Assembly (NCBI GenBank): GCA_031002005.1
Contig: CM061921.1
Location: 122,480,597 to 122,544,596 of the forward strand
Length of the DNA stretch: 64,000 nucleotides
Direction: 5' to 3'
Source: Vandiemenella viatica
Taxonomy: Eukaryota; Arthropoda; Insecta; Orthoptera; Morabidae
Shown: positions 560 to 62,246 of the stretch, piece after piece
Position numbering within the stretch: position 1 is the stretch's first letter
Layout: each line of letters begins with the position of its first letter
Translations under genes and position numbers: made by a program
Notes under the pieces: model-generated
Told to the model about the DNA's origin: nothing
The model's input: only the letters and a program-made list of their open reading frames with translations
Database searches by the model: none

Positions 560-1598
560 GGGAGCGTCCATAAACTACGTGTTCGGTATAGGGGTAGGGG
601 ACTTGAGTAGAAATTTTCACTAGGCTAGGGGGAGAGGGGAATGGGGAGGGGGATGGAGGGGAGGGAGAATGGGGAGGGGGGATGGAGGGGAGGGAGAATG
701 CGAGGGGGGATGGATGGGAGGGAGAATGGGGAGGGGGATGGAGGGGAGGGGGCGGGGGGTGTTTGAACCAAGTCACGCAGCTTTTTATTCATATTATTTT
801 CACAGGTACAGAACACACAATAGCTTGTGGATAATTATTACTGTTATTTAAATTTCCCCGTGCGTAATTCAGATGTCCGATATATTCACGAGTGCTGACC
901 TGGCGCATTTTAACTAAACGACACGCGACGGCACAATTATGATTCGAAAAACATTAGATTCAAATTCACTTGCAGATATCAGTCGGAATTTTTCAAAGCA
1001 GTGGCAGTTCGTATTGTTTTGCTGGTTTGAAATAAAGCTGTTTTATTAGAATAGTCCGATCACACGGCTCATTGATGAAATAATTCTAATTTTGTTCTGT
1101 CAAATAGATTTTAAAATCAAAGTGTGTTGTGAAGTTGGGCTGTAAAATGAATTTACGAGGCCTATAGGAAATGTTTTCTAAACGAGTTTTTATTATCCAG
1201 TATAAGAAGATCATAGAATCATTCCTTGGCAATGTAGAAAGAGAAGAACTTAAGCATGAGAAACCAAAACAATCAGCTCATCTTAGTTTTTTTTTTTACG
1301 CCGTAGGTATAGTTTGTTCTATTTCATTAATTAATGAACAGTGACGAATCAGATATGGATCCCTGACTGTACCTGAGAATGGTTTTTCCCAGTAATTGTT
1401 GATTTGCAGGAGAGGCTTGTGTCAACATTTCATTCAGAATATTTATAATTATAGGAAAATACATAACGCAAATGTCAGTTGAGTTCAATATACACGTAAT
1501 AATTTTAACGACAGTCTGTCAAGAGAAAACACTTCAAAACGTCTTCTGGAATTAATAAGGAAAAGCTACGACGAAGCCACGTAGTTTATGGACCCCCC
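560..1598. mobile_element. Non-autonomous TIR element, TTA target duplication
   Basis: The left end reads GGGAGCGTCCATAAACTACG and the right end is its inverse complement with two mismatches (CGTAGTTTATGGACCCCCC). Both ends are flanked by TTA (557-559 and 1599-1601). The same terminal type (GGGGGCATCCATAAATTACG) bounds the element at 44,023-44,413, so the two belong to one family of short DNA transposons. No transposase is encoded. The interior contains a G-rich minisatellite near the left end and otherwise AT-rich sequence without a convincing gene. The superfamily is not assigned. Confidence 0.65.
620..765. repeat. G-rich tandem repeat
   Basis: Degenerate tandem units of roughly 28-30 bp built from GGGGAGGGGGATGGAGGGGA-like blocks with AATG spacers. 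The plus strand is almost pure purine with many runs of three or more G, so it could form G-quadruplexes or a triplex. It gives rise to proline-rich spurious open frames on the minus strand. It sits just inside the left end of the TTA-flanked element. Confidence 0.8.
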
Positions 1599-3860: not shown

Positions 3861-4315
3861 CTCAAGCTGTGCTTCCAGCCCAATCTGTTAGTAAATTTCG
3901 TTTCTAGACAAAACTTATTACTAAGTATAGATGTCGATTTGCTCTGCATTGTACTATTACTTTGTGTCTGCCTAAAAGTTTCAGGCGCCCTTATATTTTG
4001 CCTTATTATTTGACATGCCTTACGGGCTTATACCTGGTCTAAGGTATAATATGGGCAGCTAAAGTTATTAGAACCCAAGAATCTGATTCCCATGCTGAAG
4101 AAAGAAGAAAAACCCAAGCTGAAATAAAGCTGCCCTCTGTTAACCCTTCCCCCATACACCCCCGCACATTCGATTGTTTCTCTGTTCTTAAATATGTTGG
4201 AAATTGATTCTCTTCAAGAGACAGGTTCGATGATAGAATGATGGCTTTCCTGTCTTATTATCCCGACTCGGTGTAGTTTGGGGCAAATCTCACGTTACCA
4301 ACAGCTCTCTGTATC

Positions 4316-4592
4316 AGTAGAGGGGGAACAAGAGAACTCTGAATTATCTGGAAATCCCCAGTTCCGGCCAGTGGGAAGCGTTGGCGTGCTTTTGAATCAG
4401 CCAATCAGAGTGCAGGGGGCGCGTCCATGTCCTGGCGTGCCGCCTGATGGTAACAGTAACCTCAATCTGTACCGCTACACAATAGGACAGCGCACAGCAG
4501 TTACTCCAATCTGACTATTTGTGACACATTGCCGCAGGCGTACAGCGCGACCTCAGACTATTCCGCATGACTCGATAAGAAAGACGTGCCAT
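4316..4592 (+). repeat. Left terminal inverted repeat of the Polinton-like element
   Basis: The sequence matches the reverse complement of 16,040-16,327 with scattered substitutions and indels. Shared blocks include AGTAGAGGGGGAAC, TTTTGAATCAGCCAATCA (TTTTGAGTCAGCCAATCA on the right) and ATTCCGCATGACTCGATAAG. It may contain the left promoter. Confidence 0.9.
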
Positions 4593-4830
4593 CTATCAAG
4601 AATATTTTCAGGAAATGCGGCGTGGCTGCTTGCTGGTTTGAATAACCCTGTCCTAGCATGTCCAGGCCTCAGTGTTTGCTTGCCACTCACCGTGTGAAAG
4701 TATCATAGAATTGTTTTCTCGCTCTTTACAATTGCTCAGTCGTTGTCTTATGCAGGTCATGTTTTATTACTTTAAATAATAATTATGGTTTGTGTGTATT
4801 ACTGTTATTACAAATGAAATTATTATACAG

Positions 4831-5686
4831 ATCTCTCCGCGCTCTCTGAGGAGAATATAGAGATTTTTTCGCAAAATGTAAGTTAATTTCCTTTCTTGTT
4901 AACTGTTTTAGTTTAAATTTTCGATATGTATTGAGACTAATTTTTTCTCTCTCTCTGTTTGAGGTCTCTCCACTGTGGAGAATATTTCCAATGCTACTTT
5001 AGTGAGCGGTACGTTTTGCATGAAATTAATTTATTTGCTGTAGATATTTTCTAGTTTGTATGGTACTACAGATGTAATTTTTTATTTTGTAGGTCTCCCA
5101 GTTGTTTCGACTCCTGAGAATATTTTCAATGTGGAGCCTGCGTGTGCCTTTGATAGTGGTAAGTTTCGCATTGAATTAATTGATTCGTTGTAGATACTTT
5201 TCTTGTTTAATACTAAACATAAATTGTATTTTGTTGTAGATCCGCCTGTCAATATCTCTTCTGAGCTGGCTCAGTACTTTGTAAATTGTAAGTTAAATTT
5301 TGTGTTCTTAACAGAATTGGTTTAAGATTTAGCTCTCTATTAAGACTAATTATTTTCATCTATTTCCCCCAGACTGTCCTGGGCCAGTGGAAGCCACTAC
5401 TGGTAAGTTATAGTTGTTTACGATATTTTTGTGCTACTGATATTTTTAACATTTGAGTCTGACTCCATCTATTTGTTACAGATATTACCGAACAGCCTCT
5501 GCCCATCAATGATGAACCAGTTGGTGTATTTGCTAGTGGTAAGTGTTAAATCATATTTTTATTTTATTAATATATAAGCATCTCTGTCTGAAACTCTCTT
5601 TGTTTGTTACAGATATACCAGATGAACCAAGAAGGAAAATAGTTTCCGATGATGGCCCATTCAAAAGGATGAAAGTAATAGAAAAT
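4831..5686 (+). CDS. Micro-exon array upstream of the polymerase
   Basis: Seven short exons can be drawn: 4831-4877, 4964-5008, 5093-5158, 5240-5287, 5373-5402, 5482-5538 and 5613-5674 or 5686. Each is preceded by a pyrimidine-rich tract and AG, and most are followed by GTAAGT or a close variant. Exons 2-6 each begin with two bases completing a codon and end with one base, so all are phase 1-1 and can be added or skipped without changing frame. The encoded peptides are acidic and related: LSALSEENI, LSTVENIS, LPVVSTPENIFN. Later ones are proline-rich, and exon 7 ends basic (EPRRKI, FKRMK). A further acceptor at 5765-5766 leads into the polymerase reading frame, so the array may encode its spliced N-terminus or a separate protein. 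Function is unknown. The first exon and promoter are not identified. Confidence 0.6.
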
Positions 5687-5766
5687 GTATTTTATCAACT
5701 TATTTTGTTGATTTCTGCCTTATACTTGTAACCCTGAATCTAAAATTTGTTGTTTTATATTTTCAG

Positions 5767-8680
5767 GTGACTATAAACCAATGTCACCGCCGGACGTGGA
5801 AGCTTTGTGGGGCATACCCACATTCACGACCGTGGAGTACATTCCTCAAGTAAGAACCAGCGCGTGGGTAGACCCAATAGACGACGATCTACTTGGCATT
5901 TTATAAAGAGCAGATTTCCGCGATTATTTAAAATCCATCAACACCGGCTGTAAAATGCCAGGTGGGGTTGTATTGCCTTTTCAAAATTCAGAATGTCACC
6001 CGTATTTGTTTAATGCCCAAGATGCAAGAGCTCACATTAAGCACTTCCCTGAAACAATGGTATGAAGTCTATGTGTTTCAAGATATCCAGAAGAGATTCA
6101 GTGAATTCCAGGATCAGAATAGTGGTAAATACCTCTAACAAATCAACTCCCTCGACATCCATATAGCTTAATTCGAACTGTTGTATCGGACTCTTCATTT
6201 ATGGCACTGCCATTCGATATCCAAGCAAAGAAAGCAATTGTCAACATTAAAAACAATGATGAACGTTGTTTTGTATGGACTATCCTGGCAATTCGCGAAT
6301 AGGTGGAAGATCACGCAGGTACTACTAAAGTACTTGCCAAGTACGAATTACATTTTGCAGGCATTGACTTCCCTGTAAATGTCAGACATTTCTAAAGTTG
6401 GGAGGCAAAATTCTGAATATTCGATCGATGTCTACGGATTGGAACCAGAAGGTAGAAAACATAGAGGTGTAGGCCATCTCGCTGCAGTCAAACGCTGTTT
6501 CCATATTAAAATATTGTTGATTACAGAGGGTGAATATAAGTTTCACTGCTGCTGGATCGAGAACTTGTCGTCGGTTAGTTCTTCAGTATTCAATGCATCG
6601 GTTGTATTTTCATATGTGATTGGATATCTACAAGCATTTCTGGCACGAAGAGTCGACCTACCCAAGGGACGAAGACAAAACCTTAAAGTTTAAGGTTTTT
6701 GAGCACCAACAGCGTGTACCCTTCGTCCTTTACAGCGGACTTTGAATGTTTGTTGAAACCGTTTGATACGTGCAGACCACACCCTAACGCCTCTCACTCC
6801 ACAGCAGTCCAGGAACACACCCCTTTTGAAGCTACATAGCAAGTCGTTTGCGCATACGACCCACAACTGAACCGATTCGACTCATCCTTGGGGAAAACCC
6901 CGAGAATTGGTTAGTGGAACAATATGTGAAACTGGCCCATGACGTTGATGAAATTTACAAAACGGTCACACCTCTTGCAATGTCGGCTGACGATGAAGCA
7001 CAATTTACCAGTGCTACGGTATGTCACATCTGTGCTTTGCACTGGGGCCTTTAAGGTTCGCGATCATTGCCACATCACAGGTGCATTCAGAGTGGCTGCA
7101 CACAATGATTGTAATTTACAGCACAAAAATCAAAGTAATACCCATCTTTTTCCATAATTTGTCTGGGTATGAATGCACACTCCATTGTTATGGTCTTAGC
7201 ACACGTCGATGAAGATAGGATGGATGTGTTTCCCATCAACACTGAACGTTACATTCCGTTTTCTAAAAAGATTAATAGTAGCACGCCACTATTAAACAGA
7301 ACGCAGTGTAGAGCTGGACCTTCTGGCAAATGTCGACATGCTTCTCTTTTTCGAACGTGGAACTCGTGGTGGTATTTGCCAGTGCCTCCATAGGTACTCA
7401 AAGGCAAAGAACCGGTACATGGCTGGAGTACAACCACGACGCACCTGAAAATTTTATCATGTATTTTGATGTAAACAATCTGTACTGCTGGGCCATGTCA
7501 TAGTATCTACCTTCTGGAGGATTTTGATGGTTAATAGGCCAATCAGATTGCTAGCATATACTTGATGAGTTTAGCAGCCGACTCACTAAGGGGTTTCGTT
7601 TCAGAGATGGATTCATGACGATTCCCTAGGATAAACACGAACATTCTAGCAGACTTACCGCCATTTCCAGTCCACAAAGCCGCCCATGGCATCTATGTTC
7701 CCCAAGCTGATGACTAAACTGGAGGATAAGGTTTAGTATGTTCTCCATTACCTAGTCCTCCAGCAATGTGTAGGCTTGAGGATAAAGTTGGATACTGGTA
7801 CACCGGGTAATATCTTTCAATCAGTCACCGTGGTTGAAAGAATATATTTCTCTCAACAAGTGTTCTCGTCAGTCAGCCAAGTCAGAATTTGAGAGAGAAT
7901 TTTTCAAACTTATGAACAATTCAATTTTCGGGAAAACAATGGATAACATTAGAAAACGCGACGTGAAATGCTGCACAGGTTGCGCGGGCTGCCGCGGTTC
8001 CTGTAAACATGTACGGTAGCTTCACCACACTTTAAGTATTTGACTATTTTCGAGAAAGACTTTGTGGCTCTGGAGATGGCGAAAGGGCGGATACTTTTCA
8101 ACAAGCCGCTCTACCTCGAGATACGCATTCTTGATCTGTCTAAATTGCGGATGTATCTATTTCACTATAAATTCGCCATTCCGTAGTTTATATACTCAAA
8201 ACTACTTTATATGGACACAGACAGTTTAATCTATTTGGTAAATAGCTGTGATCAGTATGAAGTAATGAAAGACAAAAGGGAGGAATTCGACACGTCTGGA
8301 TATAAGCCCAACAACCGTTTCGATATAGAACCCTATAACGAGAAGGTTGTTGGGGTTATGAATGATGAGGCGAATGGTTCCCTCATTGTTGAGTTTGCGG
8401 GTCTAAGATCGAAAATGTATTCATTCCGACTAGAATCTAACCAGACCTCAAGCGTCTGGCATGAACAGTAACAAAAAAACTTTCAATAGAAGATTACATT
8501 GAATGTTTGCATGGAGCACTACCCAAATATCACGCCCAACAACGTTTTCAGTCGAGCCTGCATAAAATTATCACCGTTGAAGTTTCCAAGCTGGGTCTGT
8601 CTAGATTGGATGATAAGTACTAAATTTACCCCGACTTTATTGGGACCCTATCATGGGGGCAAAAGTCCGTACCTGAGTGA
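5767..8680 (+). pseudogene. Family-B DNA polymerase of Polinton type, broken
   Basis: Would replicate the element, by protein priming in known relatives. Recognisable pieces in order are an N-terminal region at about 5780-6060, an exonuclease-I-like ADFE motif near 6740, and a recombination-endonuclease-VII-like zinc module at about 7020-7130 (CHIC...VRDHCHITG...HNDC). Then follow HNLSGY near 7160, the conserved FFKLMNNSIFGKTM block near 7900, and the catalytic motif C YMDTDSLIY at about 8209-8235. The gene is crossed by many stops and frameshifts, so only short open segments remain. An acceptor at 5765 suggests that it was joined to the upstream micro-exons. It runs convergent to the integrase. 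Confidence 0.9.
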
Positions 8681-8689
8681 ATGTTTGTA

Positions 8690-9375
8690 AAATAAGTGTG
8701 AATGGAGATTAAATATAGCGTTTACCAATGTGTTTATTTTACAGTGCACTGGAGGGTGGGATGCATTGAATTATAAATAATTAATGATGATGTGTTGTTA
8801 TCTGGCTGATGATATGTATATAGTTGATGGTGATTTGTGGTCACTTGCCTGATGGGAAACTTGATATGTGTGGTCATCTGTTGTGAATAGTTTATGGTGA
8901 TTTGTGATCGTCTGGCTAATGTCGATTTGTAAATAGTTTATGTTTGACCTAATGGAAATTGAGGCGGGGTTTTGTTAGTGCATTGTAACTTAGTATTAGG
9001 TATCAAATATCAGTGCTTAAAATTTATGAACTGTGACACTCAAATATCTTGCAAATGTATAACTGATGCACTGAATTATGTAAAAAAAGTTTAATGTTTA
9101 TGAATATAAAAAACTGTAATAGTTATATTTACAAAAAATATGCTGTTAATATAATTATAAGTATTATATCTTTATGAATGGTTGAAATAAAACCACACAT
9201 ATGTTGCACTATTGCTTATTGATGAAAAGATAATTTATAATTTAAATAAATCTTTTACGTATCCATGTGTTATGTGATTTATCAATACCTAGCCACTTCA
9301 CTAATACCATAATCTTCATTTTCCTTATTACTCGTTCAACCAGTAATAAGCTTGTATGCTTTGTTAATTGTAATT
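8690..9375. other. Convergent intergenic region with degenerate tandem repeats
   Basis: Between the 3' ends of polymerase and integrase. Bases 8,770-8,950 contain three to four degenerate units of about 50-60 bp around TGGCTGATGATATG and TTATGGTGATTTGTG. The rest is AT-rich, with AATAAA at 9187-9192 (plus) that could serve polyadenylation. No gene is seen. Confidence 0.55.
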
Positions 9376-10175
9376 CTAGCTGGTAAAATGCTCCTGCAAT
9401 ATGTTTACCCTAAAATCTTTAAGTAAATAAGTTACAAGATTGGTTAATTTCACTTTTCTGAAGGTAAACACTTCAGTTGACCAGTTTGGTAGATAGCCTT
9501 TCTCAAACCTTTGTTTAAACCTACTGATCCTGACATGGTCACCAACTTTGAATTTTGCTGGCGTGGTAGTTTTAACACTGAAGTATACCGTTGAAAGTAG
9601 AGAGTCGTCCTTCACATCACAGGGTTTCATTTTAACAGTGCTATGCCACTTGTTGTTACAATTTGACATTAAGTGAGGAAGAATTTCAATCCACCGATGT
9701 GAATCATGTCTGCTGAATTCTTGCCACATTGCATTCTTAATAGTTCTGTTTAGTCGTTCAACTACTGATGTTTTTAGCTGAGTATATGTTGAGTAGTGAT
9801 TGTTATCATAGCTAGTCATGTGATTCTTGAACTTTGAATTGTAAAACTCCTTAGCATTGTCAGTGTGTAAGTTTTTAGGAACACGATCACCACTTAGAAT
9901 TCTCTTCATAGCAATAGCAACCACACTGCCTGTCTTAGTTTGAGCGGTACTGACCACGCAAACTTTGAATAAGTATCAATCATCATCAATATGTACTTGT
10001 AACGGCTGTTTTTACGAGAGTATGCGATCATTTCCACAATATTAGCTTGCCACACATCATCTAGTCCTTTGATTACTACATGGCATCTTGGGAAATTTCT
10101 TCTTGTTGGTCTATGGAGTTCTGCCATAACTTGATCCGCGTTACTATATAATGTCTCTCTCGCGAAGTGTTTCAA
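9376..10175 (-). pseudogene. Retroviral-type integrase (rve, DDE)
   Basis: Inserts the element into host DNA and makes the 6-bp duplication. The N-terminal piece (9906-10175) ends in ILMMIDTYSKFAW with the first catalytic Asp. The C-terminal piece (9376-9957) has LHTDNAKEFYN with the second Asp and SVVERLNRTIK with the Glu, so the D-D-E triad is visible. A basic C-terminal region (KFKVGDHVRISRFK) follows, as in Polinton integrases. The pieces overlap in different frames, so one frameshift separates them near 9,950. The rest is remarkably open compared with the polymerase. Confidence 0.92.
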
Positions 10176-10815
10176 CCACTGATAAAATTTCGTTGGAGTG
10201 TGTCGTATGTCCTACAAATGTCGACGCGGTAAGTAACTTCAGTCTTTCAACAAGTTCATTCGGATCATCCCAATACACATATTCCTTCATGGGAAGAAGG
10301 CCAGAACACGACTGACTGCAAAGTTTAGAGATTATGGTTTTATACTTCACATTGGTAGCAGGTTTCAAATCTTTACCAGATGGACTAAATTTTGCTCTGT
10401 AGGCACTCGTGTTGTTTAATATTTCATAATTTCTTTTCAAGTACTTGGCAATATACTGCTTTGGGTTTTTCAAAAACAACAATTGCATTAACCTTCTTAT
10501 TTTTTCATATTAATTTCCAACGATTAAAACAACATTTTCGTCAATAGTAACAGGTGAGTGCCCAAGCACTAATGTATCGTTCTTCTTTCGGACACCATAC
10601 ACTAAGTGACTTCAAGAAATCTTTGATCAAGAGAGGAGACTCCTGCTGCTGTTATATATGTTGCTGAGGTAAGAAAACTCTTTCCTTGTCACAGGTGTTA
10701 ATGAATCTTTGAAAAATTTCTCGGAGTCAATCTGACTCGTCTTTAGTTCGAGTAACTTTCGTCGAATTGCATTCCGGGCCTTTATTTTACCACGTTTAGG
10801 TGTTGTTTGGTCCAT
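10146..10815 (-). pseudogene. Polinton-associated protein of unknown function
   Basis: A basic N-terminal piece (10627-10815, TTPKRGKIKARNAIRRK) and a C-terminal piece (10144-10488 with LLPMKEYVYWDDPNELVERL and LTASTFVGHTTHSNEI) are joined by a broken stretch with VTIDENVVLIVGN near 10,510-10,550. Together they look like one gene of about 220 codons, placed immediately upstream of the integrase on the same strand. I recognise the EYVYWDDPNELVERL block as recurring in arthropod Polinton/adintovirus-like loci, but no activity is known to me. Confidence 0.7.
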
Positions 10816-10845
10816 GTTTACGCGCCGAATGGAGCTTGTGTGTGT

Positions 10846-11334
10846 TCACTGTACTATTTTCAATCTCATCGTTAATGTTGCTGTAAAAGGTTTGTGGGGT
10901 TGAACATTTACAATTGTTGGGAAAAAACTAAGTTTATCACCTCTCTTCACATTGAGTAACCTTGCATCGTTAAGCCAATTCAGTCTGACGTCAACCCTAA
11001 CCAGTTTGACTATTGAGAAGATTACACCATTGACACGGATTTCATAATAGTTTGGACCTGTCTCTAGTATGTATACGTGATCTTGAAGCATATCCGTTAC
11101 CGCTATAGTTACAACCATAGTCACTTCTGCCGTTTTCAATTTTTCGATAAATTTTCCCAGTTTATCAACATATCTTTTGGTAGCAGCATTATCTTCGTCG
11201 ATGAGGTCAGCAACGTGCTTCAGTATTATACCCCGACAATCCAAATTACCCTCCTTCGTAAGAAGTACGTGTTGAGGTGGGAACACCAATACCCTCTTGT
11301 TCTGTGTAACTGAAGTTCTCCCAAACTTGCCCAT
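10846..11334 (-). CDS. Intact fibre-like/structural protein, 162 aa
   Basis: A complete open frame starting MGKFGRTSVTQ. It contains the NAATKRYVDKLG segment that recurs in trimeric tail-fibre or shaft-like proteins. An N-terminal LDCRGIILKHVADL block precedes it and a beta-rich C-terminus follows. In position (between ATPase and the unknown gene) and size it may be the fibre or an attachment protein of the particle, but this is inference. It has no stop or frameshift, unlike most neighbours. Confidence 0.6.
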   Translation of the reverse strand: MGKFGRTSVTQNKRVLVFPPQHVLLTKEGNLDCRGIILKHVADLIDEDNAATKRYVDKLGKFIEKLKTAEVTMVVTIAVTDMLQDHVYILETGPNYYEIRVNGVIFSIVKLVRVDVRLNWLNDARLLNVKRGDKLSFFPTIVNVQPHKPFTATLTMRLKIVQ

Positions 11335-11367
11335 GCTTATAATGAAGCCAGTACATAGGATGTTTGG

Positions 11368-12102
11368 CTATTTATTCACAAATGAATCAAATCCGTTGCG
11401 GTATCTCCCATGAAACATGTCGCAGTCATTGTCAATAACCAAAAATCCGTATTAATGCTCATTCCAGCAGTATCCACATAGGTTTTTAAACCCCTTGAAC
11501 GTCATATCGGTGTTGACGTGATCGTTTTAAATGTATTTGAGTTTCATATCGTCCTGTTTAAAGAGCACGATCAAGTTAGCATTGTCTCTAAACAACTGAT
11601 TCGGTATCCGGCTATATGTCTGACACAATTAAAAAGAATCCACTGATCTGTGTCTACCCAAGCAAAAGTAATCTCGAATATTATTCTGCTTCCCAGACGA
11701 AAAATCGTCAAACACAAAAACAGAATTTGATATAGCTTCACTTGGAGGAGGTACACTTTGATTAATACTAATAATGTCAAATACTAAATTTCTTTAATGG
11801 GTTCTAATATTTTCCCTAGTAACTGATACTTTGGCTGATACAACAACTTGGAAAACACGTATAAATTTTCAAATCTAAGTCCATTGGGGTGTTCCAGCAT
11901 GGAGAGCACAAGATTGGTTTTTCCCACAATTTGATGGGTGGCACACTATTGCCATCACTGTCTCAGGGAACAGAGGCCAGTTTTTCCGCCTAGCATTGGT
12001 GCCGGCAGCTTCAACATTACTCACGGGTAATGCGTCTTTCTGACGAACCACATATTGACAAGGTTTGGTTGTTGCTGCGGCTATATATAGGTGCTCGAAC
12101 AA
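11368..12102 (-). pseudogene. A32-like genome-packaging ATPase, broken
   Basis: Members of this FtsK/HerA family pump the genome into the capsid. The minus strand shows a P-loop remnant ending GKTNLVLSML near 11,905-11,930. It then shows a Walker B-like VFVFDDFS near 11,700, followed by IRDYFCLGRH, RDNANLIVLFKQDD near 11,560 and GRYRNGFDSF near 11,400. Several frameshifts and stops divide these. The N-terminal frame (11875-12102) starts MFEHLY but may not be authentic. It is divergent from the capsid genes that start at about 12.1 kb, so a bidirectional promoter is likely around 12.05-12.13 kb. Confidence 0.75.
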
Positions 12103-12123
12103 GTAAAGTAAATCAATCGGTAA

Positions 12124-12690
12124 TAATGCCTCATACGAAGAAGAGGAAGTGTCGTGGGTTTTTAAACAAGCTCATCGAAAAATGCCTTTTGATACGCATA
12201 TACCTGCATAGCAGTTTTGTGGCCCCGGTACTAAACTGGAAAAACGGTTGGCGCTTGGGCAGAAGAGTATCAACCAACTAGATGCAGCCTGCAGGGAACA
12301 CGACATTGCTTATGCACAGGAGGCAGATAGGGTCGAAGCAGATCGTATACTCGCCGAGTGGGTAGCAGACAGAATGAAGGCTAAAGATGCAAAGTTTGGT
12401 GAATGTGCAACGCCATTCTGGGTTAACAGGGCCATACGCGCCAAGTTAATGTTTGAGGGAGGGGGGGTGTTATGAAAAAGAAACCGATGAAGAAGAAGAA
12501 AAAGGGGGTATTCTTCCCTTAATACCATTATTTGCCGGCATGTCAGATGCCGGTGCTTTGGCATGGGATGTGGCAAATATTGTCAAAGCTGTCAGAGCGA
12601 CTAAAGAAGCGAATAAACAGTCGGCTGAGGAGAAACGATACAGGCACTTGCAATGAGGAGAAAGGGCCTATATTTGAAACCAAACCGGAT
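12124..12690 (+). pseudogene. PLA2-domain minor capsid protein
   Basis: A parvovirus-type phospholipase A2 core is visible: the calcium-loop FCGPGT at about 12,220-12,237, then LDAACREHDIAY at about 12,278-12,313 with the catalytic His-Asp pair. In parvoviruses this domain helps virions leave the endosome, and PLA2 domains are also known in adintovirus-like capsid genes. A basic start (MPHTKKRKCRGF, 12,126) precedes it in another frame. After a stop at 12,475 the C-terminal region continues with AGMSDAGALAWDVANIVKAV and a KQSAEEKRY tail. One stop lies just before the calcium loop and at least two frame changes occur. Confidence 0.85.
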
Positions 12691-12699
12691 AGATGGGTA

Positions 12700-13060
12700 A
12701 GGATAAAAAAAGTCGGTTCCGCCGCTGGCAGACTAAGATATACGAAGGCATGTAAAGCGTTTGTGCATACCCCATTTTCGGGTTGTTTTCATGCGTGATA
12801 CATTACCCAAAAAAAAAATCGTGAATGTGAATGTGGAATTGTGAAATTGGACAGCGCTGAAAATTCTGGAACACATAGGGTTGCTTACATCAAGTACGAA
12901 GATGGTGTAGTTAAATACTTCGACAGTTTCGGTGACTTACCTCACCCGTTGGAATTGCTGGGAACAGAATACTGTACAATGTGCAACAACACCAGAAATT
13001 TGTCACACATATATGTGGACATTTTTGTATAAAATTCCCAGTATGAAAATATATGACATT
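12700..13060 (+). pseudogene. Adenain-like cysteine protease (C5 family), broken
   Basis: Processes capsid proteins during maturation in relatives. The order of catalytic elements fits family C5: THRVAYIKYEDG with the His near 12,875, YFDSFGDLPHP with the acidic residue near 12,925, and CGHFC near 13,010-13,025 with the nucleophilic Cys. The last motif is read two bases out of frame with the first two, so a frameshift lies near 12,965. An upstream VFMRDTLP segment near 12,790 is likewise out of frame. It follows the PLA2 gene closely and precedes the penton gene. Confidence 0.85.
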
Positions 13061-13091
13061 AGTCTTCAACGAACCTTGAACAGGATAAAAC

Positions 13092-13772
13092 ATGTCTGTG
13101 ACACTCTGCTTTTCAGGCAACAGTTCAGTCTTTGGCTGTGATTACTTCCCACCGATAGATTTGAGCCAAGGCGATTACACGATCGGCTTGGTTAACTTTC
13201 AGACTTACAATTCGATTACGAATATATACAAATCAAATTGTTAATTTAGTTACGCGAGGAATAAGGTAGTTGACATACCCACAGTATCATATGATACTGA
13301 TGATTTGTAAAATTATTTAGTTCAGCACACTAAAAACGACAAGCTAGTAAATAGAGCAAACAACAACTCACTCAAGTGCGAGATTCAAACAGGTTTGGAA
13401 ATACACCTTGCTAAACCAAACTCAGTTGGATCTCTGGTCGGATTTTCGAAATGTGTATTAAAATCTGGATTTCACATCTCAGACTACGCTGTACAGATAT
13501 ACAAAGTTAACGCGACATGAATAGAGTGCAGCGTATATACAGGAAATTACGTCAACGATTAGCTAGGACATACACTACACGAGTTTTTTCCAACAGTGCC
13601 GCCATTTTACAAGTTTGTAGAAGCACCCGCCAATGTCATCTATCTACCCATCACAGTGAAAACTCTCAGCAATATCAACATTACAGTTGTCGACCATGAC
13701 ATTGATCTAGTGGATTTTAGAGGCGAAACTATTACTCTGAGACTACATGCAAAGAATGGGCGCTCGTTATAA
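13092..13772 (+). pseudogene. Penton-like (minor capsid) protein
   Basis: The start MSVTLCFSGNSSVF is followed by FPPIDLSQGDYTIGLVNFQTY. Later come a RANNNSLKCEI block, KPNSVGSLVGFS, HEFFPTVPPFYKF, and a C-terminal LVDFRGETITLRLHAKNGRS. The order and the position between protease and major capsid protein fit the vertex protein of Polinton/adintovirus relatives, expected to be a single jelly-roll. At least three in-frame stops and one frameshift (near 13,560) are present. The alternative is another conserved structural protein of the same family. Confidence 0.75.
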
Positions 13773-13862
13773 CAAGAAGCGTCAGTCATGATATTACAGT
13801 GAAACGATTAACACCTGAGAACGTGGTCTTCATACAGTCTTTAGGCTATACCGTTAAAAAAC

Positions 13863-15285
13863 ATGGATGAGGCGCTTGACATAACTTCCAGTGTGGAATT
13901 TGACGAGTCGGTGATCCGCAAACAATATTTTAGCCATCAGCCGCATACGCCAGCCACATTTAAGAACAATGATGAAATTCGGATACCTATTCAGAACCGA
14001 GACACATATACACAGCCGTGCGAAAGTTACTTGCATATTGAAGGAAGATTCATCAAATCAGATGAGTCAGGAGCTACAAATTCAATGGTATCACAAGTAC
14101 ATTGAAAACGCTTATTTCTACTGATCCTCAAAAACTGGTGTGCTGAACAACGCAGTAGGGGGGCAACGTGATCTTGGAAATGGCTACTTTGATGTATGTA
14201 TTCCATTAAGTATGGTTTTTGGTTTTTACGAAGACTCTAAAAGGATACTTGCAAATGTAAAACAAGAACTGATACTATAATGGATTTTGTTGTTTTCGCA
14301 AGCGTCATATTAATATAAATGCATACGAGATTATCGCTGCGATGCTGTACTCCTCCTTCTTCTTTTCCCGGCGTTTCAACCTAGTCTTAGGTCTTCTTCA
14401 GGGGTCGTGTGCCGATTCTGCTAGCCACCATGGTCTCCAGCAGATCATAATCTGTAGCAGATTCGGCATACGACCCCTGAAGAAGACCTAAGACTGGGTT
14501 GAAACGCCGGGAAAAGAAGAAGGAGGAGTATAGCAACGCAGCGATAATCCCGTAAGCATTTATATTAAGAACTGATACTGATTCGATCTTGCGACGATAC
14601 CAATTCATTTGTACAAGCCAATCCGCATCCCCAGAAAAGTAAATTTACTATTGGCAATCTCGCATGGGCAATGCTTCATTTGCAATTAGGTGAAAGAGAG
14701 AAACTATCTCTGCTTAAGATTGTAGACAGTGAGAACCCACTTCGAATAAATTTCAGAAGTTAGGATCTATTGGAGTACCCGTTACTGCTTATAAGTAAGA
14801 CTCAAATTTGGTCTTTGAAAACATCAAACGATATTGGAGAAACCCAGGTTCGTGGTTCTGGGATTTAAAAACAAAAAGGAAACGTAATGAGAAATTAAGT
14901 GCGGCCCTGTTTGACCACTGGAATCTCGCGAATGTCAGACTGTTCCTAAATGATGTGTCGTATCCGTACGAGAACATGAATCTAGACTTTAAGAAAAAAT
15001 CGAATCGCAGTGTTGTATGACATGTATGAAAGTTTCCAACAGTCTTTCTACGAACAAAGTCATCCTTTTCCTCTACTAAGCCGTGAACATTTCAGGATTG
15101 CACCTATCGCCGTAATCGACTTTTCACACCAAAATGAGTTGGTGAAACCGGGGCCTGTAGAAATTCGTATAGAATTTGATAGCAGTCATAATTTTCCAGC
15201 ATACACCGCCGCATACTGCCTGATTCTGCACAATTGGGTTGTAGAATACGTGCCTCTAACAAGTGTCGTGCGTAAGCTGACATAA
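13863..15285 (+). pseudogene. Major capsid protein (double jelly-roll), split by an insertion
   Basis: The start MDEALDITSSVEFDESVIRKQYF is at 13,863, truncated here by frameshift after about 80 codons. Conserved blocks follow: ESYLHIEGRFIKSD near 14,020 and FYEDSKRILANVKQEL just before the insertion. After the insertion come FTIGNLAWAMLHLQLGE, SAALFDHWNLANVRLFLND at about 14,900-14,955, and the C-terminal 15010-15285 frame with PLLSREHFRIAPIAVIDF and VVEYVPLTSVVRKL. It assembles the icosahedral shell in relatives. Bases 14,264-14,579 contain a later palindromic insertion with a 13-bp duplication. Other damage consists of small frameshifts. Confidence 0.88.
14277..14566. mobile_element. Palindromic Penelope-like (pLTR) insertion in the capsid gene
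   Basis: Flanked by an exact 13-bp duplication AAGAACTGATACT (14,264-14,276 and 14,567-14,579). The inserted sequence is an inverted repeat with arms of about 110 bp (14,312-14,422 and 14,456-14,566), a short loop and a one-sided 35-bp extension on the left. Each arm carries CTGAAGA, a short imperfect hairpin, then GAAACGCC with a CCC/GGG closing pair (14,474-14,511 in the right arm), resembling a minimal type-I hammerhead ribozyme. The arrangement mirrors the larger Penelope-like palindrome at 27.6 kb. Confidence 0.7.
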
Positions 15286-15319
15286 AACCAAGTAGCGCCA
15301 TTTATTACCAACCATTACC

Positions 15320-15835
15320 ATGCCGACCATCTTGCTGGACGCACAGGGATTCAAGAAGAAGAAGGATGGTGTGTTTATTTTCAAAGAAGTTGCTGTGTGT
15401 GAAATACGATCTGACAACATTATCTCTACACATTGTATTTCTGTGTCGTCACCATCGCGTGGAGGTGATGACCCAGTAGTTAGCTGGCTGACACATAATT
15501 ACAATAGAATACCTTGGAACGCTCATGGCGTTTCCTTGAGCAAGATGTGCACTATTCTACATGCGATAACCAACGAATGTGACTCAATTATTTACGTTAA
15601 AGGACGGGAGAAGGCTCGATGGTTCCAGCAAATTATCAGGAAGAAAGTATGCTACAACACAGAAGATTTAGGGTGTTCGCCACTGCAAGAAGTCAAGAAA
15701 AATAATTTGACAAAACTTTGTAACTTACTTATATTTTGTAATAATATGTGTGTTGCTGAAAATGTATTTTTAATCAGCCAATTGGTGGCTGATATAAAAG
15801 AATGTTTAAAAAATATATACTATCTTATTATTTAA
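15320..15835 (+). CDS. Intact 171-aa Polinton-associated ORF, unknown function
   Basis: A complete frame from ATG to stop in a largely decayed element, 35 bp downstream of the capsid stop. Features seen are an N-terminal TILLDAQGF start, HCISVSSPSRGGDD, SIIYVKGREKARWFQQII, a CYNTEDLGC segment and cysteines near the C-terminus. The pattern (acidic start, KG..K...W motif, late His/Cys region) recalls small conserved proteins next to capsid genes in arthropod Polintons and might be nuclease-like. I cannot assign an activity. It is the last gene before the right inverted repeat. Confidence 0.65.
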   Translation: MPTILLDAQGFKKKKDGVFIFKEVAVCEIRSDNIISTHCISVSSPSRGGDDPVVSWLTHNYNRIPWNAHGVSLSKMCTILHAITNECDSIIYVKGREKARWFQQIIRKKVCYNTEDLGCSPLQEVKKNNLTKLCNLLIFCNNMCVAENVFLISQLVADIKECLKNIYYLII

Positions 15836-16039
15836 TTAGGATAGGTGAAATAAACAAAAGAAAAACTAGCTTTAACCGTTCGTAGACCAGTGTTAAACTG
15901 GGGCTATATGACACCTCACTGACGTGTACATTATCAAAATTCAAATATATTAGCCCTTGCATATAACAAGTGGGGTAGTCATGAATCAGTTTCGTCGGCT
16001 GTGACGTCACGCGAGCAGCGGTACAGTCCGGCCGTCGGT

Positions 16040-16327
16040 GCGTCCTACTTATCGAGCCATGCGGAATTGTCCGAGGTCCTGCTGTACGCCTGGAATAGGC
16101 GTATTGAGATTACTGCTGTACACTGTCCGGCCGTCGGCTGACCTACTTAGCGTTTGGCAGTATCGTATTGAGACACGCTGTCGGAGATTGAGGTCACCTG
16201 GCGGTGCGCCTGGACCTGGCCACGCCCCCTGCACTTTGATTGGCTGACTCAAAAGCCCACCAACGGTTCCCATTGGCGAAACTTGGGATTTCCAGAAAAT
16301 TCCAAGGTATCTCGTTCCCCCTCTACT
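16040..16327 (-). repeat. Right terminal inverted repeat of the Polinton-like element
   Basis: Reverse complement of 4316-4592 with substitutions. Bases 16,040-16,170 also carry an internal duplication: CTGTAC...CGTATTGAG and GTCCGGCCGTCGG each occur twice. The outer end is CCCCCTCTACT at 16,317-16,327, followed by TATATC. Confidence 0.9.
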
Positions 16328-16822
16328 TATATCCAATTCTGTCAATGAAATTATAAGTCCACAAGCACGAAGTCCCTGGTAATAGCTAAGAGTACAAAAT
16401 TTTTGAACTCACGAGCTTGTCTGTCTGTTGGTAGTGACTGTGTGTGATGGTCGGGTTAGCGTCTGCCGCTAGAGCAGGTGCTCATAAAATCTGGGCCTAT
16501 CTCGGAGACTTCTGCTGTCCTCTGTTCTACTCACGTCCACATTCGTCGGTACATGAAAACATGCGTCAACAATTTGGTAAAACAACGGGGGAACAGATTT
16601 GATTCGCATAGACTTTCATTCCCGCACTTACAACTTTACTCGAGCTGTTCGTTACTAGAAGGTAAACGATTTCTAGCGCTGAAATTTTTTTAACATTTAA
16701 GCCCCACTCCTGTCTCCAGTTGGCCATCCTTTGCCCGCTGTAGTCGTCCGAGGTTACGTGTCTGGAGGTAATTTTCACAGTTCACTTCCTCGAAGATTCC
16801 TCTCGCTAAAAGCTTTATATAT

Positions 16823-27590: not shown

Positions 27591-27809
27591 CATATTGCGC
27601 AAATAAAAAAAAATATCTTTTTCACGGCGTTGAATATTAATATATTTTTCTCGAGCTTCCAGCCGTGTTAATATGTCATATTTGCGGGACGTTTCGAAGG
27701 CGTCCATCTCTGCCTTCATTTTCAACCTGATGTCAATGTTTAACTGTTTGTTTATTCAGCCGCTGCTACGGAAACGGTGGAAGACAAAAACCAACACAAG
27801 GCGATTACG

Positions 27810-28226
27810 TCATCCGCTCTTCTGCTCGAGACCGACGCGAAACTGTTTCAGCATTTTAATCGCCGGGTTCCAGGCCGCACTGAGTTGATAACCAGTGTCC
27901 CTGTTGACTAATAAATCAGTTAATCTAATTTCCACAGCCTCTGTAATAACGCTGGCCCAAAAATCTTTGACCCGGGCTAAAATGGTTGTCTTTTCAAATT
28001 CAAAAGTGTGACCCTCTTGCACACTATGTTCGGCCACCGCAGATTTTTCTTCTTGCCCAAGACGAACATTTCTGGCGTGCTCTACACATCGCTGAACAAT
28101 GCATCGCTGTGTCTGTCCAATGTAGCCGCGGCCACATTCACAATAAACCAAGGGCCTTGCGTTTCTGCCGTTTGTGGGTGCCCTAAGTTTCAAAATAGGT
28201 AGACTGCTATCACAACACGGAGTCAA
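27810..28226 (-). pseudogene. Penelope GIY-YIG endonuclease, left arm
   Basis: The open frame contains YCECGRGYIGQTQR, the GIY-YIG-type nuclease core of Penelope-like elements, with the Arg of the next helix in VQRCVEHARNVR. Downstream lie HTFEFEKTTILAR and an acidic ITEAVEIRLTDLLVNRD, which supplies the catalytic Glu in the family. It nicks the target DNA to prime reverse transcription. The RT part is missing, and the first residues read through into unrelated sequence. Confidence 0.85.
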
Positions 28227-28653
28227 GACAATTTATAGACCACCCACTAAAATTAGTAACTTGGTCGGCAGCGTTAAAGATGACCTAGGTTTACGAACCC
28301 CTGGTGTATATTATATACCATGTGAATGTGGCCGCGGCTACATTGGACAGACACAGCGATGCATTGTTCAGCGATGTGTAGAGCACGCCAGAAATGTTCG
28401 TCTTGGGCAAGAAGAAAAATCTGCGGTGGCCGAACATAGTGTGCAAGAGGGTCACACTTTTGAATTTGAAAAGACAACCATTTTAGCCCGGGTCAAAGAT
28501 TTTTGGGCCAGCGTTATTACAGAGGCTGTGGAAATTAGATTAACTGATTTATTAGTCAACAGGGACACTGGTTATCAACTCAGTGCGGCCTGGAACCCGG
28601 CGATTAAAATGCTGAAACAGTTTCGCGTCGGTCTCGAGCAGAAGAGCGGATGA
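28174..28653 (+). pseudogene. Penelope GIY-YIG endonuclease, right arm
   Basis: Mirror of the left arm but extending further 5': it adds TIYRPPTKISNLVGSVKDDLG and TPGVYYIPCECGRGYIG, so this copy retains the linker between RT and nuclease. It ends at a stop after VGLEQKSG, as on the left arm. The start codon lies in the junction and is unlikely to be real. Confidence 0.85.
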
Positions 28654-28840
28654 CGTAATCGCCTTGTGTTGGTTTTTGTCTTCCACCGTTTCCGTAGCAG
28701 CGGCTGAATAAACAAACAGTTAAACATTGACATCAGGTTGAAAATGAAGGCAGAGATGGACGCCTTCGAAACGTCCCGCAAATATGACATATTAACACGG
28801 CTGGAAGCTCGAGAAAAATATATTAATAAAAAAAATATCT

Positions 28841-31689: not shown

Positions 31690-33321
31690 TTAGGGCTGCC
31701 TCGAGGAGGCAGACATGTCTTCTTTTGTTGTCAGGTGATTTATCAACTGCGTGAGAAGGGTGATGAGTTCGTATAATCTTCTTTCTCGTTGATCGGCAGC
31801 GTGTCTGGAGAAGGAATGGTCGCATGTTACTCTGCCTCCTCCGCTGCCTTCCCCTCTGGTGATCTTCGGCCTTACTTGTTTCTGTGATGGCCGCTGTCTG
31901 GTAGTAGTAGCAGCACGTTGCCCAGTTGATTCCGCTGTTGTGGCTCTACTTCGTTGTTTTCTTGGCTGCGAGTAGGCTTCTCGGAACTGCTCAGTGCGTG
32001 TGGTCACTGGAGGGCAGGGCCCTCGCTCTTGGCGACTTGTTGCGGGCTGCATATGGAACCCACTACGTTGGCTTCGTTTCTTCTTGCTACGTTGCTGCTT
32101 CCAAGCTCGACATCCGCGATAAGAAGCAGCGTGTGACAAGCCGCAGTTGCAGCAAACAGCGTCCTCGCGACGCTTGTCGCAATCAGCAACATAATGTCTT
32201 CCTCCGCAGCGGACACATCTAGCTGGTTCAGTGCAGTCGCTTGCGAGATGTCGAAAATTCTGACATCTGTAGCACTGAACCAGCTCTCGTGACGGTGGTT
32301 TTTCTGCTGTACTCGGCGTATTGATGCCTGTCTTCTTTGTTCTGTGACCAGGAAGCATGATGTCGAAGGACAGGGAGGCTTCCCGTAGCATCTGGGTGGC
32401 AGCCTCGAAGTCTGCGGGGCAGGACAGCAGGATCTTAAGTCCCAGATGGTCTGGCCAGCTGAACATGGGGAGCTTCATGGCGCTCTGCAACTGGACCAGT
32501 AATTGCCAGTAGTTACCAGCGCAGTTAACGTGGATTGGTGGCACCGGACCCTGTTCCGGTCCCAGGAAGACTGCCGGTGTTGAGGAATCAGATGACGGTG
32601 TTACAGGTTCATCACCTTGTGAAGGTGATGGAGTTGATGCTGGAGTCGCAGCTGCAATTTCGTCACTTTGTGAAGGTGATAATATTGTAGACCTAATCGG
32701 TGTGATCTTGTAGTTTCGGCAGGTAGTAGGATCGTAGCTGGAGGTCTTGAATCTTCTCTTGGTTAGTTCGACGTATTCCTCCCAGTCGAAATCGCTGGCC
32801 AGCGGGGTCGGGAACTCGAGTGCCTCCGGCCACGCCTCGAGATCAACTGGTCGGCACTTCAGAGCAAGGTGGCGGTGCTCTCTGCTGGTCAAGACCTGCT
32901 CGAAGGTGGTGACGTCACAGGTTGGTATCTTCCAGGTGAATCGACGTTCATCAAGGAGGATTGAGATGAAGAAGCACCACTTCTTCGGATTGCCCCGTTC
33001 GAGGCGTCGTCTCCATACATTCAGGGATAGGTCTTCTGGAGTGGCACCTTCAAAGACGCGTTCAGTAGACCCCGGTGGATAATGGGAGGTTTCCGCCATG
33101 AAACCTACTGCACGTGGGAAGGCGCCGCCTAGTTTCGTCTTCTTCTTCTTGGTCTTAGCCTTCATAGCTGTTGCATTGTGGACTGGCGTCTCGGATGCAC
33201 AAGAAGCTGCTGAGTTAGACATGCTCGTAGTGAGTGTAGCGAGCCGAGGACGCACCAGTGCATTGTGCAGCCGGGAGTCGACGAGAGAAGTTACCGGGCT
33301 CCGGCCTCGGAACGGAGCCAT
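31690..33321 (-). CDS. LINE ORF1 (Gag-like) with three zinc knuckles
   Basis: A long uninterrupted frame. The start at 33,321 (MAPFRGRSPV) is preferred; a Met further upstream at 33,426 would add 35 unlikely residues. An N-terminal basic run (KAKTKKKKTKLGG) precedes a domain of unknown type. A Pro/Ser/Thr-rich linker with repeated TPSPSQGDEP-like text follows. Next come CYRCQNFRHLASDC, CVRCGGRHYVADC and CCNCGLSHAASYRGC, which are CCHC knuckles. The C-terminus is Arg/Gln-rich. This is the nucleic-acid-binding ORF1 of a jockey- or R1-type LINE. The matching endonuclease-RT is not downstream, so it is a stranded or truncated half. Its intact state suggests recent activity. Confidence 0.8.
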   Translation of the reverse strand: MAPFRGRSPVTSLVDSRLHNALVRPRLATLTTSMSNSAASCASETPVHNATAMKAKTKKKKTKLGGAFPRAVGFMAETSHYPPGSTERVFEGATPEDLSLNVWRRRLERGNPKKWCFFISILLDERRFTWKIPTCDVTTFEQVLTSREHRHLALKCRPVDLEAWPEALEFPTPLASDFDWEEYVELTKRRFKTSSYDPTTCRNYKITPIRSTILSPSQSDEIAAATPASTPSPSQGDEPVTPSSDSSTPAVFLGPEQGPVPPIHVNCAGNYWQLLVQLQSAMKLPMFSWPDHLGLKILLSCPADFEAATQMLREASLSFDIMLPGHRTKKTGINTPSTAEKPPSRELVQCYRCQNFRHLASDCTEPARCVRCGGRHYVADCDKRREDAVCCNCGLSHAASYRGCRAWKQQRSKKKRSQRSGFHMQPATSRQERGPCPPVTTRTEQFREAYSQPRKQRSRATTAESTGQRAATTTRQRPSQKQVRPKITRGEGSGGGRVTCDHSFSRHAADQRERRLYELITLLTQLINHLTTKEDMSASSRQP

Positions 33322-33429
33322 CGCAACCAAAAGAGGTGTTCGACAGCAACCCAGCAGGTAGGATCTACTGAGGAAGAGTGGGGTATGGAAACAGATCGGG
33401 TTAGTTAGGCAGAAGTTCCAATACATGGC

Positions 33430-61451: not shown

Positions 61452-62246
61452 TCAGTATATATTTTTGGGGGCATTTCCATAAAAGATACATCCATAGTCA
61501 ATTGTTGATCGAATGAGAGAACGGTATAATGTTATCATTGTTGCTGTGTTGGCTCCCCACCAAACGTGACTGACTGCTCTCATTATGTTTAAAGCATTCC
61601 CAGTCCTTTCTATTGTGTGTTCGGCCCAGGTAAGCCTGCTATCTAAATAAGGACCTAATAGCAATGCTGATGTTTTAATCGGAATTAAATATGGGCCTAA
61701 GGGCATTTGCGTCTGACTGATTGGTTCATGTTTTCTAATAAAGATTACTATGGAGGATTTGGATGGTGACAGGTTCAATTGATTTTGTTCCATCCATTGC
61801 ACTATGGCTTTTGCTGTTTCTTCTAATCTCTTCCGTGTTAAAGTGAAGCTTACAGATGACGAATATACACATTTATCATCTGCATATTGTAGGATCTTTA
61901 CTGCCGGTGGTATAATAAGTTCTATGTCGGCTACGTATATTGAATATAACCATGGACTTAATATTGCTCCTTGTGGAAGGCCTTTAGTTATTACTCGAGG
62001 GCCGAACAGAGTATTATCTTTTTTGCGTAGGTATATGACACGTGTGTTTAACAATTTGTATATTCCTTTAAGGTAGATGTCTGGTAGGTTTAAGGCTTGT
62101 AGTTTTTTAATGAGTAGTGTAATATTCACTCCATCATAGGCTCCGTAGATGTCAAGAAATAATGTTGTAAGAGAACTATCGGTCGAGAATGCTTGTTCGA
62201 TATCGGCTGTTACCAGGCTTAGATTATCTAGAGTGCTCCTTGCCAC
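61452..62246 (-). CDS. LINE family E reverse transcriptase core, open 264 aa
   Basis: An uninterrupted frame with FLDIYGAYDGVNITLL (first catalytic Asp), KGLPQGAILSPWLYSIY, and ILQYADDKCVYSS (the YADD catalytic box). It is followed by LNLSPSKSSIVIF, DSRLTWAEHIERTGNALNIM-like text and LIRSTIDYGCIFYGNA. All RT catalytic residues are present, in contrast to the other LINEs. The first Met of the frame lies within the domain, so the true N-terminus is upstream; the 62336-62518 frame continues it. Confidence 0.85.
   Translation of the reverse strand: MARSTLDNLSLVTADIEQAFSTDSSLTTLFLDIYGAYDGVNITLLIKKLQALNLPDIYLKGIYKLLNTRVIYLRKKDNTLFGPRVITKGLPQGAILSPWLYSIYVADIELIIPPAVKILQYADDKCVYSSSVSFTLTRKRLEETAKAIVQWMEQNQLNLSPSKSSIVIFIRKHEPISQTQMPLGPYLIPIKTSALLLGPYLDSRLTWAEHTIERTGNALNIMRAVSHVWWGANTATMITLYRSLIRSTIDYGCIFYGNAPKNIY

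What the first reader, a model, noticed from the sequence alone, without database searches (positions are those of the whole stretch)
4831..5766. Symmetric micro-exon run feeding a Polinton/adintovirus polymerase
Seen: seven 30-74 nt exons, each with a pyrimidine tract plus AG and most with GTAAGT-like donors. Exons 2-6 are all phase 1-1. They encode related short peptides and lie between the left inverted repeat and the polymerase frame, with a final acceptor at 5,765. Viral or Polinton genes are normally intronless or nearly so. Phase-symmetric micro-exon runs are a mark of variable secreted proteins in some parasites and gall insects. This may be an exon-shuffled, alternatively spliced N-terminus, or a host-like gene captured by the element.
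Basis: partly seen in the sequence, partly recalled or inferred. Interest (0 to 1): 0.88.

Follow-up and report, generated by a model that had tools for sequence, protein, structure and literature searches.

The report
Spliced micro-exon leader of Polinton polymerase
A decayed virus-like mobile element in a large animal genome carries, just before its DNA polymerase, a row of tiny exons that dozens of related copies share but in differing numbers, which suggests that the element's polymerase gene began with a spliced, easily re-sized leader, something not expected of these usually intron-free elements.

Summary
Inside a 12.0-kb decayed Polinton (4316-16327; 6-bp target duplication, 5 of 6 matching) seven micro-exons run from 4831 to 5674, then the acceptor at 5766 and the polymerase. 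Exons 2-6 are symmetric phase 1; shuffles gave no such run. I fetched 59 sister copies from the same 3.72-Gb genome. Most share the chain; they place a first coding exon at 4731-4755 (start codon not intact in the window copy), show exon 7 as symmetric, and differ in exon number by whole exon-plus-intron units. A second subfamily has phase-1 chains of up to ten exons with another repertoire. In the predicted phase the array's pN/pS is 0.78 (0.67-0.90), against 0.95-1.06 in wrong phases and introns. So this was a coding leader under purifying selection that grew and shrank by tandem duplication; its frame runs on into the polymerase. The window copy is dead. RNA was not available, no spliced retrocopy was found, and function is inferred: a flexible N-terminal extension of the polymerase with a basic, possibly nuclear-targeting last exon. 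Host capture or a secreted protein is not supported. New variant of a known kind.

The parts
4310..4315 (.). left half of the 6-bp target duplication
   Evidence: TGTATC against TATATC at 16328-16333, 5 of 6
4316..4586 (+). left terminal inverted repeat
   Evidence: 4312-4586 matches 16041-16331 at 71% over 297 columns; outer part 104 of 124 identical
4731..4755 (+). first coding exon (E0), 25 nt, ends in phase 1; start codon not intact in this copy
   Evidence: start codon at this column in 24 of 33 copies, 25 nt long in 28 of 33, donor GTAATG in 23 of 33
4831..4877 (+). exon 1 (47 nt here; 48 nt in several other copies)
4964..5008 (+). exon 2, 45 nt, phase 1-1
5093..5158 (+). exon 3, 66 nt, phase 1-1
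5240..5287 (+). exon 4, 48 nt, phase 1-1
5373..5402 (+). exon 5, 30 nt, phase 1-1
5482..5538 (+). exon 6, 57 nt, phase 1-1
5613..5674 (+). exon 7, 62 nt here without a good donor; 72 nt and symmetric in several other copies; carries two basic clusters
5767..5903 (+). exon 8, start of the polymerase frame entered in phase 1
   Evidence: acceptor 5765-5766 score 9.6; phase-1 frame open at least 100 codons in 11 of 36 copies, longest 208, other phases at most 81 and 73
5767..8690 (+). decayed type-B DNA polymerase region
   Evidence: 7750-8249 matched by 110-114 of the 120 listed Polinton polymerases; at least 21 stops or frame changes; PF03175 weak, under cut-off
9376..10211 (-). integrase (two overlapping open pieces)
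   Evidence: PF00665 weak, under cut-off; 1528 homologues of the first piece, top hit 54% identical
12212..12472 (+). phospholipase A2-like domain
   Evidence: PF08398, E 1e-7
16041..16327 (-). right terminal inverted repeat
16328..16333 (.). right half of the target duplication

Best explanation
The micro-exons are the spliced, protein-coding 5' part of the DNA polymerase gene of a Polinton family. A short first exon (MAQSLSDA-like) ends in phase 1; the following introns are also phase 1, so each exon can be added, lost or skipped without changing the frame, and the last acceptor opens the polymerase frame. The exon number grows and shrinks by tandem duplication and loss of whole exon-plus-intron units, while the two ends (exon 1, exons 4 and 5 and the basic exon 7) stay recognisable. 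Shown by sequence: anatomy, phases, homology of the units, number variation, phase-specific constraint on the array, frame continuity into the polymerase. Inferred: that the transcript is really spliced and that the leader is translated as an N-terminal extension. Guess: the leader is a flexible spacer, and exon 7 (two basic clusters) helps bring the polymerase into the nucleus. The window copy itself is a dead relic.
For: Runs of symmetric phase-1 exons: at least 5 exons in 5 of 40 copies of the first set (window included) and 10 of 20 of the second; 0 of 60 in phase 0 or in phase 2; reverse strand at most 2; at most 4 in 800 and 3 in 400 shuffles. pN/pS of the array (exons 1, 4-7) in phase 1 0.78 (0.67-0.90); phase 0 0.96 (0.82-1.13), phase 2 1.06 (0.89-1.25), introns 0.95 in each frame. 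First exon with a start codon in 24 of 33 copies and a stop as the first in-frame signal upstream in 19 of those 24. Unit number 1-5 in 33 copies, by distance; 11 changes on the best tree of 30 copies. Polymerase pieces downstream in 6 of 6 copies tested. Second subfamily: polymerase piece 92.7% identical (median), array repertoire different between copies.
Against: No RNA evidence. Two short exon-junction probes found no spliced retrocopy in the genome. For exon 8 the constraint test is not phase-specific (0.84 in phase 1, 0.79 in phase 0), and 22 of 36 copies have a methionine codon within the first six codons of exon 8, so the polymerase could start there and the leader could be a separate product. 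Most copies, the window's included, are broken: in the first set a chain of five or more is intact in only 5 of 40. Well-supported branches of the tree alone force fewer changes of unit number.
Confidence: 0.77

Rival explanations
1. The array is a separate small gene (or an alternatively ended transcript) next to the polymerase: the micro-exons code for a repetitive disordered protein, and the polymerase starts at its own methionine in exon 8.
For: A methionine codon lies within the first six codons of exon 8 in 22 of 36 copies; exon 7 of the window reads on into a stop.
Against: Exon 7 has a GT donor in 27 of 39 copies and the acceptor of exon 8 is AG in 33 of 36, and exon 8 is entered in the same phase as the array introns; its frame is open before the methionine.
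Confidence: 0.15
2. Introner-like intron invasion: one ancestral exon was cut up by copies of a mobile intron.
For: In the window copy the introns resemble each other more than the exons do.
Against: In seven other copies neighbouring units match in exon and intron alike (exon 0.60-0.89, intron 0.62-0.93; introns higher in 11 of 14 comparisons, small difference), and number changes in steps of one exon plus intron.
Confidence: 0.04
3. Non-coding spliced 5' leader: the exons only serve export or expression of the polymerase RNA.
For: Translation was not shown; exon 8 often has its own methionine.
Against: Exon lengths multiple of three, one open phase, phase-specific pN/pS and a conserved in-frame start exon.
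Confidence: 0.05
4. Chance or a repeat artefact: pyrimidine-rich tandem repeats that imitate splice sites.
For: The units are tandem repeats, so splice-like sites are copied together.
Against: Shuffles, wrong phases, reverse strand, 60 copies and the constraint test.
Confidence: 0.02

Closest known systems
Polinton/Maverick elements and adintoviruses
   Same: terminal inverted repeats, 6-bp target duplication, type-B polymerase, retrovirus-like integrase, phospholipase A2-like domain
   Different: polymerase gene begins with about 6-10 phase-1 micro-exons; PMC8097293 (passages seen) reports no introns in intact vertebrate elements, and in three other Polinton contigs read here the polymerase is one open frame (L002, L007, L008)
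Aphid bicycle genes (putative gall effectors)
   Same: many small internal exons that nearly all start at codon position 2, i.e. the same intron phase as here (PMC9168663, passages seen)
   Different: not a host salivary gene, beside a Polinton polymerase; no cysteine-tyrosine-cysteine pairs (recalled hallmark) or signal peptide seen by eye; sequence similarity not tested
Schistosome micro-exon genes (MEGs)
   Same: short symmetric exons that can be left out without breaking the frame (PMC8293314, passages seen)
   Different: exons here are mostly 30-96 nt, in a mobile element, no secretion signal by eye
Introners (PMC9860276, search listing only)
   Same: related introns within one gene
   Different: here exon and intron are duplicated together as one unit

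Membership tests
Polinton/Maverick | type-B DNA polymerase | tested here: met
   110-114 of the 120 listed Polinton polymerases match 7750-8249
Polinton/Maverick | retrovirus-like integrase | tested here: met
   1528 homologues, top hit 54% identical; PF00665 at 0.0013 and 0.033, under the cut-off
[quoted passage not shown]
   (duplication 5 of 6)
Polinton/Maverick | capsid proteins, packaging ATPase, protease | tested here: inconclusive
   open pieces look right by eye (recalled motifs); the two such pieces given to Pfam gave no hit, the capsid pieces were not given
Polinton/Maverick | intronless genes (usual, not strictly defining) | tested here: not met
   micro-exon array before the polymerase; spliced RNA not seen
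Bicycle genes | many small internal exons starting at codon position 2 | tested here: met
   definition
Bicycle genes | host gene family with signal peptide and CYC motifs (recalled) | tested here: not met
   copies lie beside a Polinton polymerase; exon peptides judged by eye
Schistosome MEG | mostly exons of at most 36 nt, symmetric, encoding host-exposed proteins | tested here: not met
   1 of 7 window exons is at most 36 nt; symmetric; no signal peptide by eye
Introner | homologous introns in non-homologous exons | tested here: not met

The most novel reading that the evidence does not exclude
A virus-like element makes many versions of its own polymerase: phase-1 micro-exons that turn over much faster than the enzyme are combined by alternative splicing and by tandem duplication, so that the N-terminal tail differs between copies and between transcripts, perhaps to escape a host factor that binds the tail or to tune nuclear entry.
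Probability: 0.2. Interest if true: 0.93.

Novelty: new variant of a known kind. Interest (0 to 1): 0.8.

Why it matters
Polintons are seen as simple, intron-free ancestors or cousins of many DNA viruses. A family whose polymerase starts with a row of symmetric micro-exons that multiply by whole units would show that such elements can use the host spliceosome to build and re-size a protein part. It also offers a natural record, in the 60 copies read here from one genome, of how micro-exon genes (as in gall insects and schistosomes) may arise, which is an open question and directly testable here with RNA reads.

Tried and rejected
Accelerated exon evolution: in the window copy introns are much more alike than exons, but in seven other copies the difference is small (introns higher in 11 of 14 comparisons) and pN/pS across copies is below 1 (0.69-0.94 by exon), so positive selection is not claimed. 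Selection after insertion: not needed; lesions in the polymerase are at least 21 in 2,924 nt, so the absence of a lesion in exons 2-6 is not surprising, and exons 1 and 7 and the start codon are damaged.

Searches that gave nothing: viral contigs with a polymerase piece, an internal ORF and the integrase, alone and as an alignment; protein search with the 162-aa ORF. A terminal-repeat probe gave one viral contig, of which only the ORF list was seen. The loose placement of the terminal repeat (33 of 40) is not trusted; BLAST finds it in 16 of 40, window included. Literature searches for Polinton introns or micro-exon leaders: (listings; one search found no paper); passages of six papers; a seventh holds none of the words. 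None of what I saw describes such an array, but the library holds open-licence papers only; the adintovirus paper and a paper on nematode Mavericks, looked up by DOI from memory, were not held, and Kapitonov and Jurka 2006 was not looked up.

Rows dropped: of 40 first-set copies 7 gave no usable exon 1 to exon 4 distance (L030, L045, L047, L050, L055, L059, L060), leaving 33; L049 and L052 (exon 1 placed doubtfully) and L053 (exon order) were left out of the tree, leaving 30. The first set is the 40 places into which I grouped the 73 stretches by hand; the second set is 20 of 41 long stretches other than the window. Only 40 of 337 and 40 of 761 candidates were scored, so family sizes are lower bounds. 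Codons that are stops were skipped in the pN/pS counts.

Full report
WHAT THE WINDOW HOLDS. The first 17 kb hold a decayed Polinton. Its ends read AGTAGAGGGGGAAC at 4316 and, reversed, at 16327 (two exact sites, one more with 3 mismatches), and are flanked by TGTATC and TATATC, a 6-bp target duplication with 5 of 6 matching. The inverted repeats match at 71% over 297 columns, the outer part at 104 of 124. Inside are a type-B polymerase region with at least 21 stops or frame changes in 2,924 nt (matched by 110-114 of 120 listed Polinton polymerases at 7750-8249), an integrase on the other strand (1528 homologues) and a phospholipase A2-like domain (PF08398). Protease, ATPase and capsid pieces were recognised by eye only.

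THE EXONS. Between the left repeat and the polymerase lie seven exon-like units. Exons 2-6 have 45, 66, 48, 30 and 57 nt, all multiples of three, and all start at codon position 2; introns have 74-92 nt with no such rule. Phase 1 is the only phase open in all seven. Exons have 44% GC, introns 26%. My splice-site matrices are approximations from general knowledge; with them (scores of at least 5) the best run is five exons, the best of the other phases and the other strand is 2, and 150 whole-window and 2,000 local shuffles gave at most three. Twelve Polinton contigs from other sources gave at most two. BLAST shows that the units arose by duplication of exon and intron together (4938-5102 with 5075-5249, E 2e-10).

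SISTER COPIES. The window lies in an assembly of 3.72 Gb (species not given; I take it for an insect only by recollection of its repeat types). The array with the start of the polymerase matches 73 stretches, 40 of 337 candidates scored, which I grouped by hand into 40 places. I fetched the 39 others. With loose thresholds exons 4-7 are placed in 40 of 40 (window included), exons 1 and 8 in 36 each, and 32 of 40 are collinear. Acceptors are AG in 27-33 of 36-40 copies and donors GT in 21-37 of 36-40, roughly what sites would show that were intact and later decayed (my estimate). Exon 7, 62 nt and without a good donor in the window, is 72 nt and symmetric in nine of the chains. Upstream, a 25-nt exon with a start codon in 24 of 33 copies, a stop as the first in-frame signal before it in 19 of those 24, and a phase-1 GT donor completes the gene; 15 of 33 copies have it fully open. 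In the window copy this start codon is not intact. So in copies with sound exons 1 and 7 all eight introns of the leader are phase 1.

IS IT CODING? Pairwise over the copies, the array (exons 1 and 4-7) in phase 1 has pN/pS 0.78 (bootstrap 0.67-0.90), in phase 0 0.96 (0.82-1.13), in phase 2 1.06 (0.89-1.25); intron pieces read in three frames give 0.95 each. The constraint is thus tied to the predicted phase. For exon 8 the test is not phase-specific (0.84 in phase 1, 0.79 in phase 0, 1.02 in phase 2). From the exon-8 acceptor the phase-1 frame stays open for 100 codons or more in 11 of 36 copies (longest 208), in other phases never beyond 81 and 73. In 6 of 6 copies for which I read the next stretch, polymerase pieces follow.

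VARIABLE NUMBER. The distance from exon 1 to exon 4 falls into steps of about 140 nt, one exon plus one intron: one unit in 2 copies, two in 14, three in 9, four in 7, five in 1, of 33 (counted by distance; L049 and L052 are doubtful). On a tree of 30 copies built from the exon 4-7 region the number needs 11 changes (shuffled labels 14.8; as low in 2 of 200); only 10 of 27 inner branches are well supported and these alone force fewer. Units were thus gained or lost several times. End branches have a median of 0.073 changes per site, which fits copies that have decayed since insertion.

SECOND SUBFAMILY. The polymerase piece 6200-6700 matches a larger group (82 stretches, 40 of 761 candidates scored). 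Of 20 places fetched (of 41), 20 have the polymerase and 19 an array-like match at 60-74% identity. Phase-1 chains reach ten exons (at least five in 10 of 20; phase 0 at most 3, phase 2 at most 4, reverse strand at most 2, shuffles at most 3 in 400). In the first set the same count gives 5 of 40 with at least five, 0 of 40 in the other phases, and at most 4 in 800 shuffles. Exon peptides at the ends stay recognisable (such as LPVLSAADVDNFFTN, a piece with SSELARYFAN, CPEHDSNQPGDIFV, and a basic exon ending DEGPSKRIKMA or DDGPSKSIKMS), while the middle consists of other repeats (PVNASEYLAETNFSGNDFAR, LPVEPVSASA and others). The polymerase piece is 92.7% identical (median; 84.4-97.5%) among these copies, although their exon sets differ: the leader seems to turn over faster than the enzyme. 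Some of these polymerase pieces lie as close inverted pairs, so rearranged derivatives exist.

HOW IT MAY WORK. Shown: a coding leader of symmetric exons, under constraint in the active family, re-sized by whole units, in frame with the polymerase. Inferred: spliced by the host and translated as an N-terminal extension. Guessed: a flexible spacer, with exon 7 (two basic clusters separated by acidic residues, by eye like a bipartite nuclear signal) targeting the nucleus. Other Polinton polymerases read here have a free-form N-terminus too: zinc-finger-like in L002 and acidic in L008, both in one uninterrupted frame (by eye). The array may be this clade's answer to the same need.

AGAINST. There is no RNA evidence. 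Junction probes for exons 4|5 and 6|7 found nothing in the genome, while an exon-intron probe of like length matched 24 of the 39 fetched first-set copies (its whole-genome run did not complete), so spliced retrocopies of the first set are absent or rare; the probes do not fit the second set. This does not speak against splicing. A methionine codon near the start of exon 8 (22 of 36) leaves room for a separate product. Most copies are broken.

KNOWN THINGS. PMC8097293 (passages) states that no introns were observed in intact vertebrate Mavericks. Bicycle genes share the small exons and the same phase (PMC9168663, passages); schistosome micro-exon genes share symmetry (PMC8293314, passages). 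Neither is a mobile-element polymerase. PMC12220804 (passages) reports group I introns in some protist Polinton-like viruses, another kind. None of the ten literature searches listed a micro-exon leader in a Polinton; papers outside the library may.

Noticed in passing
window 27635-28142 and 28321-28828: Inverted repeat with 508-nt arms, 100% complementary, 178 nt apart: a very young palindrome or an assembly fold-back.
   Followed up: no
window 14310-14568: A 127-nt-arm inverted repeat (90%) sits inside the presumed capsid region of the Polinton, like a small inserted hairpin transposon.
   Followed up: no
window 31690-33426 (-): 578-aa open frame with CCHC-type knuckles by eye, gag-like ORF of a retroelement, GC about 50%; no Pfam or NCBIfam hit.
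   Followed up: partly
window 61452-62246 (-): Reverse transcriptase fragment (PF00078, E 4.7e-24).
   Followed up: no
window 629-750: G-rich minisatellite with a unit of about 28 nt.
   Followed up: no
G000:C7:358375865-358380012, C4637:3345-4443, C7:242332262-242333362: Polymerase pieces of the second subfamily as close inverted pairs, perhaps deletion derivatives with the piece in both arms.
   Followed up: no
L025/L026, L024/L027, L033/L040, L054/L056: Pairs of closely similar array copies 23-107 kb apart on one contig, probably segmental duplications.
   Followed up: partly
L001-L012: Polinton-like contigs binned in prokaryote MAGs (for instance the Escarpia symbiont), probably contamination from eukaryotes.
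   Followed up: partly
L069, L070, L073, L076, L077 (ends of the chains): Phase-1 exon-like pieces around and after the exon-8 peptide (such as VYMSPPDLAALWGIPIVDINQPST), which hint at further introns in the polymerase start of the second subfamily.
   Followed up: no
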